Below, piece by piece: positions 27,680 through 37,544 of a stretch of DNA of 64,000 nt. The DNA lies in NCBI RefSeq assembly GCF_001661675.2, contig NZ_CP019603.1, forward strand, positions 620,001 to 684,000, read 5' to 3'. Each line of letters starts with the position of its first letter. The stretch's first letter is position 1. A model generated the notes under the pieces. That model searched no databases, was not told the origin of the DNA, and saw only the letters and a program-made list of their open reading frames with translations. The DNA comes from Croceicoccus marinus. Its GTDB lineage: Bacteria > Pseudomonadota > Alphaproteobacteria > Sphingomonadales > Sphingomonadaceae. The position numbers and the translations under genes were made by a program.

Positions 27680-27754
27680 ACAGGCCTGATCGCCCGCAAT
27701 TACCCCGTCGGGCCTCGCCCCGTCGCGGGCAGGGGGCGCCTTGGGCGATATGGC

Positions 27755-27779
27755 GGCACTGCTTGCCGTGCGGCTCGTT
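27755..27779 (+). promoter_or_regulatory. Candidate EcfG-type promoter before the small Asp-rich protein gene
   Basis: GGCAC at 27755-27759, 16 bases, then a perfect CGTT at 27776-27779, one mismatch from GGAAC-N16/17-CGTT. It ends 27 bases before the start codon, a plausible place for a short leader carrying the AGGAG at 27796-27800. Confidence 0.35.
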
Positions 27780-27806
27780 GCAAACATATACCCACAGGAG
27801 AATGCC

Positions 27807-28271
27807 ATGAACACGAAGATGCTTTTCGGCAGCCTGCTTGGCGCTGCCATGTTTGTAACGCCTGCGATGGCGCAGGTCGTGCCTCAGGAAGAACCGATGC
27901 CGGGCTCGCTGCCCAATACCGCGGATCCGCGCGACACCATGCCGACGTCGCCATTGCCGCCGTACGAGGACCGGGCGAATCTCGACAATCCCACCGATCC
28001 GGCGATGAACCCGATGGACCACACGATGGGTCCGCCGACGACGCCGATGCCGCACAATGACGCGATGCCCGATCGCCCCGCCGTTCCCCCGGCTGGCGAG
28101 ACCGTGCCGCAGACGGTGGCCCCCACGATCGACACCGATGGCGACGGCATCATGGATGCCTGGGACCGCGACAGGGACATGCGTCCCGACGCATGGGACA
28201 CGACCGGCGACGGCATGGCCGATACGATGGACGACAATTACGACGGCGAGCCGGACATGTCGCCGATGTGA
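27807..28271 (+). CDS. Small secreted Asp-rich protein with calcium-binding-like repeats
   Basis: A 154-residue protein of unknown function. It begins with a clear signal peptide (TKMLFGSLLGAAMFVTPAMA, cleavage before Q). The mature part is rich in Pro, Met and Asp, and the last 45 residues contain DTDGDGIMDAWDRDRD and a second DTTGDGMADTMDDNYDGEPD, resembling EF-hand or thrombospondin type 3 Ca-binding loops (DxDGDG). Start ATG 27807 is chosen over an upstream in-frame ATG because AGGAG lies six bases before it and the signal peptide begins there. A hairpin terminator follows at 28358. Probably an envelope or periplasmic protein; a role in general stress is suggested only by the candidate promoter. 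Confidence 0.75.
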   Translation: MNTKMLFGSLLGAAMFVTPAMAQVVPQEEPMPGSLPNTADPRDTMPTSPLPPYEDRANLDNPTDPAMNPMDHTMGPPTTPMPHNDAMPDRPAVPPAGETVPQTVAPTIDTDGDGIMDAWDRDRDMRPDAWDTTGDGMADTMDDNYDGEPDMSPM

Positions 28272-28357: not shown

Positions 28358-28390
28358 AACGACCGCCATGCTTGCCGCATGGCGGTCGTT
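28358..28390 (+). terminator. Perfect 14-bp hairpin between the Asp-rich gene and pldA-like gene
   Basis: Arms AACGACCGCCATGC (28358-28371) and GCATGGCGGTCGTT (28377-28390) are perfectly complementary with a 5-base loop TTGCC. The T-tract is weak (TT, then GCATGTTT). Probably a terminator of the upstream gene; it could also shape the pldA leader, since the next start is 44 bases downstream. Confidence 0.6.
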
Positions 28391-28433
28391 GCATGTTTCG
28401 AACCCAGTTCCGACCCAAGGTAAGCCCCGCCCC

Positions 28434-29660
28434 ATGACAATGTCCCTTCCCGCCCGCCTGCCGCGTATCGCCGCCGGTTCGACATTGGCGCTAGCAGCCG
28501 TGATGGCGGTGCCAGCGGCTGCCCAGCCGCGCGTGCTGGTCGAATCGATCGCGCCGGGCGCGGATGCCTCGTCGGTCGCGGTCGAGGTCGCGGTGATCAA
28601 TGCCGCCGATGGCCCGGGTGCCGCCTTGCCGGCGGAGGTTCCCGCGCAAGTCGACGCCACGCTGATCGCTGCCGAGCGGCAGTACCGCGTGATACTGACG
28701 TGCAGTCCCGATGGCGCGGCTCGGATCGAACCTGGTCAATTCGCTACGGCAAGCTGCAGCTTTGCGCTTCCCGGCGCGGTTCCAGCGGGGGCCGACATGC
28801 AGCTTTCGCTCGGCGGCGCGGCGCCGGCCTATGCGTTCTCGCTTCCCGCCGTGCGAGGCGAGGACGGGGAGGGCAGCAGGCTTGCGCTGGGGCTGCCGCT
28901 GGCGGATAGCGCGGTACCATCGGCCCAGCCCGAGAGCGGAAACGCTTTCCTGGGCAATCTGTCGGTCTATCAGCCGATCTATGCCGCCTATGGCCCCGGC
29001 ACCAACAGCGATGCGCGGTTGCAGATCAGCTTCAAATACCAGCTGTTCGGCGATGCGGGCGCTGTCGGCGGCGATGCGCCGATCGTGAACGGCGTGCATT
29101 TTGGCTATACCCAGCGGCTGTTCTGGGACCTGGGCGCGGATTCCTCGCCCTTTCGCAACATCGATTTCATGCCCGAGCTGTTCTACCTGCAACCCGCGGT
29201 CGAGGTCAGCAATGGGCTGGCGCTGGGCGGACAGCTGGGGGTGCGGCACGAATCCAACGGGCGCGACGGCGCGCAGTCGCGCAGCGCCAATACCGTCTAT
29301 CTGCAGCCTGTCGGCACGTTCGATGTGGGGGACTACACCGTCTCGGTCGGGCCGCGCCTGTTCTTCTATGTCGGAGACCTCGAGGATAATCCCGATATCC
29401 GGCGCTATCGCGGATCGACCGGGCTGTTCCTGGAAGTGGGGCAAGACGACGGGCTTCGCCTGACGACGCAGAGCCGGTTCAACTTCTCCAGCGGCAAGGG
29501 CGCGGTCGAGGGGGAATTGTCCTATCCTCTCGACCGGATCGTCGACACCGACCTCAACCTCTATGTCTTCGGCCAAGGATTCGTGGGCTATGGCGAGAAC
29601 CTGCTGGATTATGACCGCCACACTACGCGCCTGCGGATCGGCTTTGCCATCGTGCGCTGA
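28434..29660 (+). CDS. pldA: Outer-membrane phospholipase A (OMPLA/PldA family) with N-terminal extension
   Basis: A 408-residue protein with a signal peptide (about residues 8-30, AAVMAVPAAAQP). The C-terminal half is an OMPLA barrel: GYTQRLFWDL, SSPFRNIDFMPELFY and GVRHESNGRDG. The catalytic triad is visible as H272, S274 and N286, with exactly the spacing of H142, S144 and N156 in E. coli OMPLA. The barrel ends in a strand with a basic terminus (LRIGFAIVR). It hydrolyses phospholipids that reach the outer leaflet. It is longer than E. coli PldA (289) because about 130 residues of beta-rich sequence precede the barrel; their function is unknown. Start is ATG 28434, with ATG 28440 as an alternative. 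Confidence 0.88.
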   Translation: MTMSLPARLPRIAAGSTLALAAVMAVPAAAQPRVLVESIAPGADASSVAVEVAVINAADGPGAALPAEVPAQVDATLIAAERQYRVILTCSPDGAARIEPGQFATASCSFALPGAVPAGADMQLSLGGAAPAYAFSLPAVRGEDGEGSRLALGLPLADSAVPSAQPESGNAFLGNLSVYQPIYAAYGPGTNSDARLQISFKYQLFGDAGAVGGDAPIVNGVHFGYTQRLFWDLGADSSPFRNIDFMPELFYLQPAVEVSNGLALGGQLGVRHESNGRDGAQSRSANTVYLQPVGTFDVGDYTVSVGPRLFFYVGDLEDNPDIRRYRGSTGLFLEVGQDDGLRLTTQSRFNFSSGKGAVEGELSYPLDRIVDTDLNLYVFGQGFVGYGENLLDYDRHTTRLRIGFAIVR

Positions 29661-30666: not shown

Positions 30667-30693
30667 AAAAGGTGCGATCTGCAAGGAGCTGCT

Positions 30694-32376
30694 GTGGCGG
30701 GACAAAGACTGGGTTTACGTGACGCCGCGCAGTGGATAGCGGAAATCATCGGGCCCGATTACGCCTATATCCGCATCGGAATCGTCTATACCGTCGCCAT
30801 TACCCTGCTGTCGCTTGCGACGCCGATTTCCGTCCAGGTCCTGATCAACAGCGTCGCGCGCACGACCCTGCCCGCGCCGCTGTGGACCCTGTCGCTCGTG
30901 CTGCTGTTCCTGCTGCTGGTGGTGGCGGGGCTCAGCGCGCTGCGCCTGTATGTCATGGCCATGTTCGAGCGGCGGATCTTCGCGCGCGTGGTGGCCGAGA
31001 TCACGGTGCGCGCTGTGCACGCGCAGAATCCCTATTTCTCGGACGCGAACAGCGGGCATCTGTTCAACCGCTATTTCGACATGCCGGTGCTGCAGAAATC
31101 GATCCCCAGCCTGGTGATCGGGGCCTTTACCATCATCCTGCAGGCGATCGTGGGGCTGGCGGTGACCAGCTTCTACCACCCGTTCTTCCTGGCCTTCAAC
31201 ATGGTGCTGGTGACGCTGGTGTTGCTGATCTGGCTGCTGTGGCGGCGCGGCGCGGTAACGGGCGCGGTGGGGCTTTCGCATGCCAAGCACAATGCCGCGC
31301 ACTGGCTGGAAAGCGTCGGCGGGTCGAACGGCTTCTACAAGTCCAGCCGCTATGTCGGGTTCGCGATGGACCGGACGGAGCGCGTGACCGCCGCCTATAT
31401 CGACGCGCACAAAAGCTATTTCCATTTCAGCTTCTCGCAGGCGGTCGCCTATTTCCTGCTGTACGCGCTGGCGAGCGCGGGGCTGCTGGCGCTTGGCGGG
31501 AACCTGATCATCCAGGGGCAGCTGTCGATCGGCCAGCTGGTCGCGGCAGAGCTGATCCTGTCAGGCGTATTCTACGGCATCTCGCAGCTGGGCTGGTATC
31601 TCGACACCTTCTACGACATGGCCGCCAGTTCCGAGGAGCTGTCGCTGCTGTTCTCGATCCCGCAGGAAAGCAATCGCGCTTCGGGCGAGGAGCCGTCGGA
31701 CGGGTCCGTCCGCATGCGCGAGGTGGTGCATGGCGTGGCGCATCTGTCCTTCGCGATGGCCGGCGGCGAGCAGGTCGTCGCGGTGGTGGAGCCAGGGCTG
31801 GAGCGCGTGCTGGCGGGCCTGCTGAAGCGGCACATATTGCCCGACCGGGGCCAGGTGCTGATCGGCAAGGGCGATCTGGGTACGTTCGACATGTACCTGC
31901 TGCGCTCTGCCGTGACGGTGCTGAACCGGCCGACCATCGTCGAGGTGACGATCCGCGAATATCTGACGCTCGCGGTGGACGAGGGGGACAGCAAGGCGAT
32001 GATGATGGCGCTCGACACCGTGGGGCTGGGCCGCCGGGTCGCCACCCTGCCCGAAGGGTTCGACACGCTGCTGTCCTCGTCCGGTGCGCCGCTGACCATT
32101 GCCGAGGTGATGCAGCTGAAGCTTGCCAATGCGATCCTCAGCAGGCCCAAGGTGCTGCTGATGTCCGAACTGTTCGACATGATGCCGGTCGAACGGCTGA
32201 AGGCGGCACTCGCCCGGCTGCGGGAAAGCGACACGACCGTGCTGCTGTCCACCCGCCGGCCCGAGGCGATCGCGCTCGACGCCTATATGTGGCTGGGCAA
32301 CCGCGAGCAGTGCCGCTTCGCCAGCCACGGCGACCTTCGGCAATATGTGGCCGAGCGGGAGCATCAGGATGCCTGA
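30694..32376 (+). CDS. ABC exporter-like protein with a degenerate, probably ATPase-dead nucleotide-binding domain
   Basis: A 560-residue protein built like a type I secretion ABC half-transporter. Residues 20-310 hold about six membrane segments; a linker follows and a nucleotide-binding-domain remnant spans roughly 340-550. In that domain the Walker A loop reads VEPGLERVLAGLL (365-377) without the GxGKS/T. The Q-loop Gln is missing (TVLNRPTI). The LSGGQ signature reads SGAPLTIAEV (463-472). Walker B reads KVLLMSELFD, with the Asp replaced by S491 but E492 kept, and the H-loop His is replaced (LLSTRRPE). The frame is intact, GTG 30694 has AAGGAG five bases upstream, and the stop overlaps the HlyD-type gene by 8 bases, so it looks functional rather than a pseudogene. 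Energy source and substrate are unknown. Confidence 0.85.
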   Translation: MAGQRLGLRDAAQWIAEIIGPDYAYIRIGIVYTVAITLLSLATPISVQVLINSVARTTLPAPLWTLSLVLLFLLLVVAGLSALRLYVMAMFERRIFARVVAEITVRAVHAQNPYFSDANSGHLFNRYFDMPVLQKSIPSLVIGAFTIILQAIVGLAVTSFYHPFFLAFNMVLVTLVLLIWLLWRRGAVTGAVGLSHAKHNAAHWLESVGGSNGFYKSSRYVGFAMDRTERVTAAYIDAHKSYFHFSFSQAVAYFLLYALASAGLLALGGNLIIQGQLSIGQLVAAELILSGVFYGISQLGWYLDTFYDMAASSEELSLLFSIPQESNRASGEEPSDGSVRMREVVHGVAHLSFAMAGGEQVVAVVEPGLERVLAGLLKRHILPDRGQVLIGKGDLGTFDMYLLRSAVTVLNRPTIVEVTIREYLTLAVDEGDSKAMMMALDTVGLGRRVATLPEGFDTLLSSSGAPLTIAEVMQLKLANAILSRPKVLLMSELFDMMPVERLKAALARLRESDTTVLLSTRRPEAIALDAYMWLGNREQCRFASHGDLRQYVAEREHQDA

Positions 32377-33421
32377 GCGTCCCGAGAACCGGCAGCATTT
32401 CAAGACGCTCGCCTCGCTCAGCCCGCCGCGCATCGCGGTGGTGATGGCCTGGCTGATCGGGCTGGGCTTCGTGCTTGTGGTTGCGCTGCTGTTCGTGCCC
32501 TGGGTGCAGACCGCACAGGGCATGGGCAAGGTCGTCTCGCTGGATCCCGACGATCGGCCCCGGCAGGTGACATCGGTGATCGAGGGGCGGGTCGAACGCT
32601 TTTTCGTCAGCGATGGCGACCAGGTGCAAGCGGGCGATCCCATCGCGCGCGTGGTCGATGTAGATCCCGGCCTGCTCTCGCGCCTGAGCGCCGAGCGCGC
32701 GCAGCTTGAGGCGGAGATCGCCGCGATGCAGCAGGCGCGGCAGGTCGCGGCGATCGATGTCGGGCGCACGCGCCAGCTGCTGGAAGAAGGGCTGGCATCG
32801 CGCCGCGAATACGAGCAGTCGCAGATCCGCATCGCCGAGGCCGACGCCACTATCGCGGAGGCGCGCGCCGCCATCAACCGGATCGAGACCGAGATCAATC
32901 GCCGTTCCGAACAGGTGGTGCTCGCCCCGCGCGAAGGGCGGGTGCAGCAGGTCAACGGCGAGCTTGGCGGGCAGCTGATCGATGCCGGCACCGTGCTGGC
33001 GGTGATCGCGCCGGAACAGGTCCAGCGCGCGGTCGAGCTGTATGTCGACGCGCGCGACGTGCCTATCATCGAACGCGGCAGCCCCGTCAGGCTTGAGTTC
33101 GAGGGCTTTCCCGCGATCCAGTTCAGCGGTTGGCCCAACCTGGTCTATGGCGTCTATGACGGACAGGTGCGCACGATCGATCCGGTCGCTGGTCCCAATG
33201 GCCAGTTCCGGGTCATCGTGGAACCCCTGCCCGGTGCCGAACGTCCGTGGCCGGGCGAACGCTATGTCCGGCAGGGCAGCAATGTCGTGGGCTGGATCCG
33301 CGGCAACACCGTCACCGTCGGGTTCGAGATCTGGCGCCAGCTGAACGACTTCCCCTTGCAATACGACCGCACGGCGAGCGAGACGTCCGAGCCGGGCAGC
33401 GGGTGGGGTTCGTCCTCTTGA
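32369..33421 (+). CDS. HlyD-family periplasmic adaptor
   Basis: A 350-residue membrane-fusion protein. One transmembrane segment lies at about 22-45 (IAVVMAWLIGLGFVLVVALL). A lipoyl half follows (VIEGRVERFFVSDGDQVQAGDPI), then a coiled-coil hairpin at about 95-195 rich in Ala, Glu, Gln and Arg, the second lipoyl half (LAPREGRVQQVNGELGGQLI), and a beta-barrel part. Start ATG 32369 lies inside the end of the pseudo-ABC gene and has GGGAG seven bases upstream; a longer in-frame start upstream has no such site. Its partners are the pseudo-ABC protein upstream and the TolC-family protein downstream, the order of a type I secretion operon. Confidence 0.88.
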   Translation: MPERPENRQHFKTLASLSPPRIAVVMAWLIGLGFVLVVALLFVPWVQTAQGMGKVVSLDPDDRPRQVTSVIEGRVERFFVSDGDQVQAGDPIARVVDVDPGLLSRLSAERAQLEAEIAAMQQARQVAAIDVGRTRQLLEEGLASRREYEQSQIRIAEADATIAEARAAINRIETEINRRSEQVVLAPREGRVQQVNGELGGQLIDAGTVLAVIAPEQVQRAVELYVDARDVPIIERGSPVRLEFEGFPAIQFSGWPNLVYGVYDGQVRTIDPVAGPNGQFRVIVEPLPGAERPWPGERYVRQGSNVVGWIRGNTVTVGFEIWRQLNDFPLQYDRTASETSEPGSGWGSSS

Positions 33422-34911
33422 TCGGGATCGCGAAGGGATTGATGGCCGGGTTCGTCGCCGCCGCTGCCTGCGCGGTGCCGGCGATGGCGCAGGATGCGGC
33501 CGCCCCCATCGCCGCGCCAGACGTCGCTGCGCCAATACCGCAGGCCGACGTGCCAACAGACGCGCAGCAGGCCGGGCCGCTGACCATCGACGAGCTGCTG
33601 CGCCGGTCGGCCCGCACCGCGCCCCAGATCATCGAGGCGCTGGCCCGCATCCGGCAGGCGCAGGGCACCGCCCTGCGGGCCGAGGGCGCGTTCGACACCG
33701 TCTTCGATGTCGAGGGGCGCAGCCGGGTCACCGGCTATTACGGCGGCACGGTGGTCGACGGGGAGGTCAACCAGCCTTTCACGACCAATGGTGGCTATGC
33801 CTATGGCGGCTACCGCATCAGCCGGGGCGATTTCCCGATCTACGAGGACAAGGCCTTTACCAACGAGCTGGGCGAGCTGAAGATCGGCGCGCTCTATTCG
33901 CTGCTGCGCGACCGGCTGATCGACGAGCGGCGGGCGCAGCGCTCGATCGCGGCGCGCGGCATCGACATCGCCCGGTTCGAGGCGGAGGCCGCCGCCATCG
34001 GCGTGCAGAGCCGCGCGATCGAGGCCTATCAGGACTGGGTCGCGGCGGGGCTGCGGCTGCGCGCCTATCGCGAGCTGCTGGGGCTGGCGCAGGACCGCAC
34101 CGGGGGGATCGACCGGCAGGTCGCGCTGGGCGCGCAGCCGCGCATATTGCGGACCGAGAACGAGCAGAACCTGGTCCGCCGCCGCGCGCGGGTGATCGAA
34201 TCGGAGCAGGCGTTCCAGGCCGCGGCGGTGCGGCTGTCTTTGTTCTATCGCGACCTGGACGGCAATCCGATCACGCCGGGCGCCGACCGCCTGCCGCAGG
34301 ATGCCGAGGCGCTGGCGCTGCTGTCGGTCGACCCTGCTTTTCGCCTGACCCAGCGGCCCGAACTGCAGAGCCTGCTGGCGCAGATCGACCAGTCCGTGCT
34401 GAGCCTTGCGCTCGCGGAGAATGCGATGAAGCCGCGTTTCGACCTGCTGGGCGAAGTGGCCAAGGACATCGGCGACCGGGGGCTGGGCGGGCCGAGCCGC
34501 TCCCCGCTCGAGACCATCGTGGGTTTCCGCTTTTCGGTGCCGCTACAGAACCGCGCAGCGCGCGGGCGCGTGCTGGAGCAGGAGGCGAAGCTGGACGAGC
34601 TGGCGATCCAGCAGCAATTCCTGCGCGACCGGATCGAGAACGAGGTCGAGACGATGCGCATCGCGCTGGAAGGCGCGCAGCAGCTGGTCGAGACCGCGCA
34701 GCAGGAATACGAGCTTGCGTTGGAGCTGGCGCAGGCGGAGCGGCGGCGCTTCCAGCTGGGGTCGAGCAATTTCTTCCTGGTCAACCAGCGCGAGGAAACC
34801 GCGACCGACGCGCAGATCCAGCTGATCGCCGCCAAGGCCCGCATCGCCGCCGCCCAGGCCGACCTTGCCGCCGCCACCGTCGACCTCGACGCGCTGGGAC
34901 TGGCCGAATAG
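33418..34911 (+). CDS. TolC-family outer-membrane protein
   Basis: About 497 residues. The N-terminus is a signal peptide (LMAGFVAAAACAVPAMAQ) and the mature part starts with a short Ala/Pro-rich stretch, then TolC helices (LLRRSARTAPQIIEALARIRQAQ), a long central region, and the second repeat with SRSPLETIVGFRFSVPLQNRAARG and a final coiled coil. The start is uncertain: TTG 33418 overlaps the HlyD stop as other genes here do, GTG 33403 and ATG 33442 are alternatives, and all keep the signal peptide. No lipobox is present, unlike the RND outer-membrane factor. It should form the outer-membrane duct for the pseudo-ABC/HlyD pair. Confidence 0.88.
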   Translation: MIGIAKGLMAGFVAAAACAVPAMAQDAAAPIAAPDVAAPIPQADVPTDAQQAGPLTIDELLRRSARTAPQIIEALARIRQAQGTALRAEGAFDTVFDVEGRSRVTGYYGGTVVDGEVNQPFTTNGGYAYGGYRISRGDFPIYEDKAFTNELGELKIGALYSLLRDRLIDERRAQRSIAARGIDIARFEAEAAAIGVQSRAIEAYQDWVAAGLRLRAYRELLGLAQDRTGGIDRQVALGAQPRILRTENEQNLVRRRARVIESEQAFQAAAVRLSLFYRDLDGNPITPGADRLPQDAEALALLSVDPAFRLTQRPELQSLLAQIDQSVLSLALAENAMKPRFDLLGEVAKDIGDRGLGGPSRSPLETIVGFRFSVPLQNRAARGRVLEQEAKLDELAIQQQFLRDRIENEVETMRIALEGAQQLVETAQQEYELALELAQAERRRFQLGSSNFFLVNQREETATDAQIQLIAAKARIAAAQADLAAATVDLDALGLAE

Positions 34912-36659: not shown

Positions 36660-37544
36660 CTAAAGCTTCGTCGCCACCAGCCTTAGCGTCGCGCCCTTGT
36701 CGTCGGGCCGCGTTTCGAACACCCATTCGGGCGCGGCGACCGGGTTGGTGACGTCGATCTTCGTCAGCTTGGTGAGCCGCCTTTTCGCAAAGCGCAGGTT
36801 CTCCTTTATGAAATATTTGAATCCCGTATCCGCAATCTCGCCCGAGGTGCCGGTCTCCTTCACCTGAAGCACGTCGGACAGGTTCTTTTCGAACATCAGC
36901 GCGATCGAATCGCGGGTGAAGAAGGTGATGTGCGGATCGTGCGACTTCTGCCCGTTGACGCTGAGCCAGGGCTTGTTCGGCACCTCGATCAGCAGGATGC
37001 CGCCCGGCGCGATATAGCCGGCCAGCCGCCGCAGTTCGGCCACCGGGTCGATCAGATGTTCCAGCACATGGCACATCAGCAGCACGTCGACCTTGCGGTC
37101 CAGCTGATCCAGCGGGACATATTCCACACTATCGCTGCCGCTGATCGCGTTTTTGTCGGCATCGTCGCACAGCAGCCTGGCATCGGGCCACAGCCTGCGC
37201 GCGGCTTCCAGATTGGCGAGATGCCCTGCGCCGAATTCATAGAACTCGCGCGGGGCACGATCGAGATATTTGTCGGCGAGCCGGGCGAGGCCGAGACCGC
37301 GCTTCACCTTTTTCTCGAACCCGCCGGCAGAGGTCGCCGAATGCCCGTCGCCGCGATAGGAGCCGCCGTAATATTCGATGATCTTCTGCAGGTTCAGCCG
37401 TTCGTGATCGACCTGCGTCGTGTGGCAGTTGCGGCATTCGAACAGCCGCAGCGCGGGGGCATATTTCTGCCATGCGTCGCCGTGGACATATTTGTACTTG
37501 CCGCGGTCGATGAAATCATCCGACTGGCACGCAACGCATTTCAT
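36660..37544 (-). CDS. SAM-dependent class I methyltransferase with N-terminal zinc-ribbon
   Basis: A 294-residue protein. The first 45 residues contain a CxxC...CxxC set (C3, C6, C37, C40) as in methyltransferases of the type fused to a zinc-binding N-terminus. The methyltransferase core follows: FYEFGAGHLANLEAARRLWP for the SAM loop, MCHVLEHLIDPVAELRRLAG and GGILLIEVPNKPW. Such proteins often act on sugars or nucleotide sugars in polysaccharide synthesis, but here no glycan gene is next to it, so the substrate is open. It is convergent with the M50-like gene and 110 bases upstream of the end of the AraC-type regulator gene. Confidence 0.8.
   Translation of the reverse strand: MKCVACQSDDFIDRGKYKYVHGDAWQKYAPALRLFECRNCHTTQVDHERLNLQKIIEYYGGSYRGDGHSATSAGGFEKKVKRGLGLARLADKYLDRAPREFYEFGAGHLANLEAARRLWPDARLLCDDADKNAISGSDSVEYVPLDQLDRKVDVLLMCHVLEHLIDPVAELRRLAGYIAPGGILLIEVPNKPWLSVNGQKSHDPHITFFTRDSIALMFEKNLSDVLQVKETGTSGEIADTGFKYFIKENLRFAKRRLTKLTKIDVTNPVAAPEWVFETRPDDKGATLRLVATKL

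What the first reader, a model, noticed from the sequence alone, without database searches (positions are those of the whole stretch)
30694..34911. Type I secretion-like operon built on an ATPase-dead ABC protein
Seen: an intact 560-residue ABC exporter-like protein whose nucleotide-binding domain lacks the Walker A GKS/T, the Q-loop Gln, the LSGGQ signature, the Walker B Asp and the H-loop His, while keeping the domain's length and order. It is translated from a good ribosome site and overlaps an HlyD-type adaptor, which overlaps a TolC-type duct. Known: canonical T1SS uses exactly this gene order with an active ATPase. Inference: either a partner ATPase elsewhere powers it, the assembly is a passive or proton-driven conduit, or the NBD is a docking/regulatory module. 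An 8-bp inverted repeat marks its leader. No C-terminal-repeat substrate gene is next to it; the Asp-rich protein and OMPLA upstream are candidates only by position.
Basis: partly seen in the sequence, partly recalled or inferred. Interest (0 to 1): 0.8.

Follow-up and report, generated by a model that had tools for sequence, protein, structure and literature searches.

The report
Conserved exporter with dead ATP motor
A three-gene bacterial export machine has been kept in many species although the part that should burn ATP has lost its ATP-burning residues, so it probably runs on some other energy source, and one invariant acidic residue inside the membrane marks where to look.

Summary
The window (Croceicoccus, large secondary replicon) carries an intact overlapping operon: ABC exporter-like protein, HlyD-type adaptor, TolC-type duct. 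This is not recent decay. In 112 aligned family rows (window included; one duplicate), Q-loop Gln is kept in 0, H-loop His at its column in 0, the signature in 0, Walker B Asp in 1, Walker A in 2; of 20 T1SS-type control ABC proteins, 20 keep Walker A, Q, D, E and H. Of 109 loci, 108 show all three genes in order (one with a frameshifted ABC); the last is cut by a contig end. Four Bacteroidota loci look alike. Adaptor and ABC protein pass in the same 22 of 199 genomes. The dead domain is predicted to keep its fold and is under purifying selection. New: Glu286 in transmembrane helix 6 is the only invariant acidic residue of the membrane domain (112/112; 32/32 in rows not gathered with a pattern holding it) and absent from 20/20 controls. 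Best reading: a tripartite exporter whose nucleotide domain is a scaffold, probably powered by an ion gradient through E286. The core is well supported; the energy source is inferred. Against: Xanthomonas loci have an intact ABC half-exporter nearby. Literature could not be searched.

The parts
30683..30688 (+). Shine-Dalgarno AAGGAG, 5 bases before the GTG start
   Evidence: sequence read; same or one base changed in 3 other Croceicoccus loci
30694..32376 (+). ABC exporter-like protein, 560 aa, ATPase-dead
30715..31653 (+). transmembrane domain, residues 8-320, ABC exporter fold
   Evidence: Pfam ABC_membrane 31.4 bits; model; Foldseek matches to PCAT1, HlyB, TM287/288
31549..31551 (+). codon of Glu286 in helix 6: the only invariant acidic residue of the membrane domain
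   Evidence: 112/112 family rows, 0/20 T1SS-type controls; 32/32 in rows not gathered by a pattern holding it
31705..32328 (+). degenerate nucleotide-binding domain, residues 338-545
   Evidence: pLDDT 82-95 by ten-residue block for 331-550; 2.6 A over 228 residues to TAP1 NBD, 2.5 A over 222 to ComA NBD
31786..31806 (+). remains of Walker A (residues 365-371)
32092..32106 (+). remains of the signature motif (LTIAE, residues 467-471)
32164..32169 (+). remains of Walker B (S491 E492)
32369..33421 (+). HlyD-type periplasmic adaptor, 350 aa, one predicted membrane helix and a short alpha-hairpin
   Evidence: Pfam HlyD_3; model, mean pLDDT 80, pTM 0.50; nearest folds MacA/AcrA; best profile match among solved sequences is 8dck_C, the adaptor of the HlyB/D complex
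33418..34911 (+). TolC-type outer-membrane duct (TTG 33418 or ATG 33442)
   Evidence: Pfam OEP 100.7 bits

Best explanation
The three genes encode one dedicated tripartite exporter: an ABC-exporter-fold inner-membrane protein (as a dimer, inferred), a short HlyD/MacA-like adaptor and a TolC-like duct. Its nucleotide-binding domain can no longer bind and hydrolyse ATP in the standard way, and is kept as a structural or docking part. Transport across the inner membrane is most likely driven by an ion (probably proton) gradient through Glu286 in helix 6, which is fixed in the family that lost the ATP site; the substrate is probably a small molecule or peptide rather than a large RTX protein. Shown by computation: operon, motif loss, conservation, co-inheritance, purifying selection, predicted fold, invariance of E286. 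Inferred: dimer, ion coupling, substrate class.
For: Motifs lost in 112 family rows but for the few residues listed, kept in 20/20 controls. All three genes in order in 108 of 109 loci, the last cut by a contig end, with short gaps or overlaps between them; also in 4 Bacteroidota loci (annotated in 2; by ORF order and size only in 2). ABC and adaptor pass in the identical 22 of 199 genomes (the adaptor profile was built from those loci, so the news is that no other genome passes). NG86 dN/dS for the dead domain 0.17-0.26 among the four closest Croceicoccus copies. NBD fold predicted intact. E286 112/112 (32/32 in rows gathered without it), 0/20 in controls, sole invariant acidic residue of the membrane domain; it aligns at or next to a TM6 Phe of ABCB4 whose ABCB1 counterpart lines the drug cavity (recalled). 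In a quick tree from membrane-domain columns alone the family is one side of a branch with SH-aLRT 100. Adaptor MacA/AcrA-like. Precedent, recalled and not read here: SbmA/BacA, an ABC-exporter-fold protein without ATPase domain that is proton-driven.
Against: No transport, proton coupling or substrate was shown. E286 could serve substrate binding or packing. The dead domain evolves faster than the membrane domain; in two more distant pairs (one to Croceicoccus hydrothermalis) dN/dS is 0.42-0.52 against 0.18-0.24. Two distant members keep a Walker A sequence (L143, L163), so some relatives may still bind nucleotide. The same-genus copy in G036 has a frameshifted ABC gene. An ABC half-exporter gene lies beside the operon in Xanthomonas.
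Confidence: 0.5

Rival explanations
1. The protein is the regulatory half of a heterodimer with an ATPase-active ABC half-exporter encoded elsewhere.
For: Heterodimers with one degenerate site are common among ABC exporters (TM287/288 and TmrAB are among the top structural matches). The genome has T1SS ABC proteins with intact motifs. In 15 of 15 Xanthomonas loci a half-exporter (in L072 TIGR02204 MsbA_rel, 865 bits over a cut-off of 780, motifs intact) lies upstream, separated from the dead ABC gene by the LysR gene; in one Caulobacter locus (L107) a C39-peptidase ABC exporter with intact motifs lies downstream.
Against: Each ATP site needs Walker A of one half and the signature of the other (established); this family lost both, so a canonical partner would form no complete site. 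Another ABC exporter within the fetched stretch was found in 16 of 109 loci, only 2 of 36 groups, and not beside the window operon; in Xanthomonas it sits among genes such as dihydrolipoyl dehydrogenase and a LOG-family protein, so it may be ordinary flank. No genome-wide co-occurrence test was done.
Confidence: 0.17
2. A passive or gated conduit: the dead domain senses another ligand or protein and opens the path, without energy coupling.
For: The dead domain keeps its predicted fold and has new near-invariant charged residues near former ATP-site motifs in the 108 Pseudomonadota rows (R412 107, K476 105, D495 108). ABC-fold channels exist (CFTR, recalled).
Against: A TolC-linked passive path for export would be unusual; an invariant intramembrane carboxylate suggests more than a pore. 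Neither was tested.
Confidence: 0.2
3. The domain still uses nucleotide by an atypical site.
For: L143 and L163 keep a Walker A sequence; 6 of 112 rows, the window among them, keep the Glu after Walker B.
Against: The window and nearly all relatives lack Walker A Lys, Q-loop Gln, signature and H-loop His.
Confidence: 0.06
4. A decaying T1SS relic.
For: Motif loss; frameshift in the G036 copy.
Against: Loss is family-wide over two phyla, frames are open but for L035, the dead domain is under purifying selection and the three genes stay together.
Confidence: 0.03

Closest known systems
Type I secretion system (HlyB-HlyD-TolC; LssB/LapB-type ABC)
   Same: Gene order; membrane and nucleotide domains homologous end to end to HlyB (profile E 1.6e-37 over model positions 12-542); adaptor's best solved sequence match is the HlyB/D complex adaptor
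   Different: No catalytic motifs; match to HlyB begins after its N-terminal domain; adaptor and TolC-like protein far below T1SS family cut-offs; no RTX-type substrate recognised beside it
MacAB-TolC and AcrA/MexA-type tripartite pumps
   Same: Adaptor size, fold and hairpin; TolC-type duct
   Different: Inner-membrane part is an ABC-exporter fold with fused NBD, not MacB or RND
SbmA/BacA peptide transporters (recalled)
   Same: ABC-exporter membrane fold working without ATP hydrolysis, with membrane glutamates
   Different: Here the dead NBD is kept, there is an adaptor and duct, direction would be export; no SbmA/BacA model among the Pfam hits at E<=1
Heterodimeric ABC exporters with a degenerate site (TM287/288, TmrAB, TAP)
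   Same: Fold; degraded catalytic residues
   Different: They keep Walker A in both halves and one complete site (recalled); here nothing complete is left

Membership tests
Type I secretion system ABC protein (HlyB/LssB/PrtD) | Homologous membrane + nucleotide domains, full length | tested here: met
   TIGR01846 E 2.7e-28 over 28-496, TIGR03375 E 4.5e-28 over 11-528; HlyB profile match
Type I secretion system ABC protein (HlyB/LssB/PrtD) | Score over the curated family cut-off | tested here: not met
   98.7 bits against 725.55 (TIGR01846), 97.9 against 693.1 (TIGR03375), 54.8 against 510.15 (TIGR01842)
Type I secretion system ABC protein (HlyB/LssB/PrtD) | Functional ATPase motifs | tested here: not met
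Type I secretion system ABC protein (HlyB/LssB/PrtD) | Adaptor of the T1SS HlyD family and TolC of the T1SS family | tested here: not met
   TIGR01843 58.5 bits against 208.65; TIGR01844 10.1 against 225.15
Type I secretion system ABC protein (HlyB/LssB/PrtD) | Dedicated RTX-type substrate | tested here: inconclusive
   Among neighbour clusters in 5 or more of 36 groups a LysR regulator, TonB receptors, an SDR and a histidine kinase were identified; others, mostly overlapping the operon, were not; substrates may lie elsewhere
SbmA/BacA (SLiPT) | Sequence family | tested here: inconclusive
   No such model among Pfam hits at E<=1; that Pfam holds one is recalled, and HMMER's filters drop weak matches
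SbmA/BacA (SLiPT) | Proton-driven transport | not testable with these tools
   needs transport assay
Heterodimeric ABC exporter with one degenerate site | Subunit keeps the elements needed to complete one canonical site (signature or Walker A) | tested here: not met
   signature 0/112, Walker A 2/112; window has neither
Heterodimeric ABC exporter with one degenerate site | Partner half-exporter next to it | tested here: inconclusive
   Another ABC exporter within the fetched stretch in 16 of 109 loci (15 Xanthomonas, 1 Caulobacter; 2 of 36 groups), none beside the window operon
Tripartite efflux pump with MacA/AcrA-type adaptor | Adaptor fold | tested here: met
   Foldseek best hits MacA, AcrA, EmrA, MexA, E down to 9.8e-18; whole-model TM-scores only 0.30-0.43 by query length

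The most novel reading that the evidence does not exclude
An ancient clade of ABC exporters has swapped its motor: ATP hydrolysis was lost and replaced by ion-gradient coupling through a fixed helix-6 glutamate, while the dead nucleotide domain was kept as scaffold, giving an ion-driven tripartite exporter of T1SS ancestry spread over Pseudomonadota and Bacteroidota.
Probability: 0.38. Interest if true: 0.85.

Novelty: new variant of a known kind. Interest (0 to 1): 0.64.

Why it matters
If right, an ABC exporter changed its energy source in evolution while keeping its ATPase domain, in a widespread three-gene export system that annotation calls simply an ABC transporter. It gives a direct test (one glutamate, one operon) of how the ABC-exporter fold can be driven without ATP, and whether a dead nucleotide domain still couples to transport.

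Tried and rejected
Recent decay: rejected. Bacteroidota genomes could not be searched except through plasmids, so an intact member there is not excluded. Leader inverted repeat: present but not conserved. Promoter scan: no site. Upstream genes as substrates: the Asp-rich and OMPLA genes lie upstream also in the nearest relative L052, the PRC-barrel gene was not found there; none of the three was found in L053, L054 or L029. Regulator: an OxyR-like LysR gene lies within 600 bp of the ABC start in 57 of 109 loci (13 of 36 groups), with no column holding Cys in over 30% of 56 aligned rows; none beside the window copy, and the best match in the own genome is 35% identical on another contig. ABC partner nearby: tested late, see rivals. 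Heterodimer test by genome-wide co-occurrence: not done.

Caveats on counts: the 80 genome-contig loci were found with two patterns, one of which contains E286; 9 of the 80 lack that pattern and have the other, and E286 is quoted also for the 32 rows gathered otherwise. L035 was left out of the motif counts for its frameshift. Rows are related: 109 loci fall into 36 groups at 80% identity. The 'signature' count asks for Ser and the first Gly only. The H-loop column count ignores a His one place later in L143 and L144. Controls: the best TIGR03375 match in 20 of 21 genomes; 9 of the 20 are over that family's cut-off; the ORF in each locus was the best BLAST hit to the own genome's P-loop-bearing paralogue. 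A first attempt chose controls by their motifs and crashed; one search replaced it. Class names for the groups f40 and f85 are not known. Gene order was read from forward-strand ORFs with BLAST cut-offs.

Literature: no paper was seen; the search and reading calls failed (12, 23, 50, 58, 62, 63, 74, 86; 85 was a wrong argument), so no claim is made that this is unpublished. SbmA, CFTR, TAP and P-gp statements are recalled.
Full report
What is there. The window lies on a 762-kb contig (G000:C2); the ABC protein is 99.8% identical to one on the 1.03-Mb plasmid plas1 of Croceicoccus marinus OT19, where the neighbouring genes match too. Three overlapping genes on the + strand run 30694-32376, 32369-33421 and 33418-34911. 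Pfam gives ABC_membrane for the first (31.4 bits, no ABC_tran hit at E<=1), HlyD_3 for the second and OEP for the third. NCBIfam places the first nearest HlyB and LssB type I secretion ABC proteins, but at 98.7 and 97.9 bits against cut-offs of 725.55 and 693.1. Among the 60 of 261 solved sequences shown, the best that covers it in one stretch is HlyB (E 1.6e-37, model positions 12-542); P-glycoproteins score higher over half-length stretches.

The ATPase motifs. I aligned 112 family rows (103 from the main group, window included; 4 and 1 from two families outside the window's class; 4 from Bacteroidota plasmids) with 20 T1SS-type ABC proteins from the window's order (best TIGR03375 match in 20 of 21 genomes, 9 of them over the cut-off). 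Controls: Walker A, Q-loop Gln, Walker B Asp, catalytic Glu and H-loop His in 20 of 20; signature Ser-Gly in 17 of 20. Family of 112: full Walker A 2, Q-loop Gln 0, signature 0, Walker B Asp 1, Glu 6, His 0. The two with a Walker A sequence are distant: L143 (31% identical; also keeps the Walker B Asp) and L163 from Riemerella anatipestifer. The Persicobacter and Aureibacter members show half-lost Walker A sequences (SGKN, TEKN). This looks like an old, stepwise loss. None of the members seen has a complete site.

Not decay. Genes ABC-HlyD-TolC stand in order in 100 of 102 loci by BLAST; of the other two, L079 is cut by a contig end and L035 (same genus) has the three genes with a frameshift in the ABC gene. 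Of 7 more distant loci 6 show all three by BLAST, and in L143 the third is an OEP protein. Gaps are short: ABC to HlyD -20 to +64 bases (109 loci), HlyD to TolC -103 to +123 (107 loci), with starts inferred from homology. Two Bacteroidota loci are annotated ABC, HlyD, TolC in a row; in two more, ORFs of fitting size follow in order, not family-tested. In the family-level sample, the ABC protein (E<=1e-60) and the adaptor profile (E<=1e-40) passed in the same 22 of 199 genomes. NG86 dN/dS among the four closest Croceicoccus copies (window against L052, L053, L054; L053 against L054) is 0.11-0.15 for the membrane domain and 0.17-0.26 for the dead domain; in two more distant pairs (L060, L008) 0.18-0.24 and 0.42-0.52 (dS is partly saturated). 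So the dead domain is constrained, though less than the membrane domain.

Fold. The model of the ABC protein has mean pLDDT 79 (82-95 by block for 331-550, 77 for the block holding E286). The NBD superposes on TAP1 NBD (2.6 A over 228 residues) and ComA NBD (2.5 A over 222). Whole-chain matches are to ABC exporters such as PCAT1, HlyB and TM287/288 with poor overall superposition (TM 0.50-0.59 by query length), as a monomer model may give. The adaptor (pLDDT 80, pTM 0.50) has one membrane helix and a hairpin of helices of 38 and 36 residues, nearest in fold to MacA and AcrA.

The membrane glutamate. Among positions 1-324, nine positions with D, E, K, R, H, N or Q are at least 99% invariant in the family; E286 is the only acidic one (112/112), in predicted helix 6; Q249 and K198 are also 112/112 and absent from the 20 controls; K216 is shared with controls. 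In the controls position 286 is S, V, M, A or N, never E. Because one search pattern contained E286, the count that matters is 32 of 32 rows gathered otherwise, which include both phyla. In the phmmer alignment E286 falls at or next to a TM6 Phe of ABCB4; that its ABCB1 counterpart lines the drug-binding cavity is recalled. A quick tree from membrane-domain columns alone puts 40 family rows (36 group representatives and 4 Bacteroidota) on one side of a branch (SH-aLRT 100) against 20 controls; long branches are present, and the order within the family is unsure.

How it may work. Each composite ATP site of an ABC dimer needs Walker A from one half and the signature from the other (established). 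Since this protein lost both, neither a homodimer nor a heterodimer with a canonical half would have a complete site. What is left is a membrane domain with a fixed acid in a membrane helix, a folded dead domain, an adaptor and a duct. I therefore hold ion-gradient-driven export most likely, by analogy with SbmA/BacA (recalled), with a gated passive conduit as the main rival. A result against this: in 15 of 15 Xanthomonas loci an ABC half-exporter (intact by its motifs in L072, the one read) lies upstream of the LysR gene, and one Caulobacter locus has another ABC exporter downstream; these are 16 of 109 loci and 2 of 36 groups, and the Sphingomonas loci in the same group as Xanthomonas gave no such hit. 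The short adaptor and the lack of a recognised substrate gene favour small molecules or peptides; this is weak.

Distribution and regulation. 57 of 109 loci (13 of 36 groups) have an OxyR-like LysR gene within 600 bp of the ABC start, 41 in the same direction and 16 on the other strand, without a conserved Cys. The window copy lacks it.

Verdict. Novelty: a new variant of a known kind (T1SS/tripartite ABC exporter). Prior literature could not be checked.

Noticed in passing
window 27741-28271 and 28368-29660: Small secreted Asp-rich protein (DxDxDG-like repeats, by eye) followed by an outer-membrane phospholipase A (PF02253); both lie upstream of the operon also in L052, but were not found in L053, L054 or L029.
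   Followed up: partly
window 36660-37544 (-): Methyltransferase-domain protein (Methyltransf_23) downstream of the operon; no link to it looked for.
   Followed up: no
L035 (genome G036): Same-genus copy of the ABC gene is split by a frameshift near residue 411; the other two genes have open frames.
   Followed up: partly
L048 (genome G041): The ABC frame is open for some 330-380 further codons upstream with no Pfam hit there; a fused domain or just an open frame.
   Followed up: no
L161 and L162, 5494-6000: Persicobacter members have an extra N-terminal stretch of about 170 residues before the membrane domain, where T1SS proteins can carry a peptidase-like domain (recalled).
   Followed up: no
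L072:6013-6912 and related loci: OxyR-like LysR regulator without conserved cysteines, 89-95 bases before the ABC start in many loci.
   Followed up: partly
L072:4081-5895 and 14 other Xanthomonas loci; L107:12711-15155: ABC half-exporter near the dead ABC gene; motifs read as intact in L072 and L107. A possible partner, or ordinary flank.
   Followed up: partly
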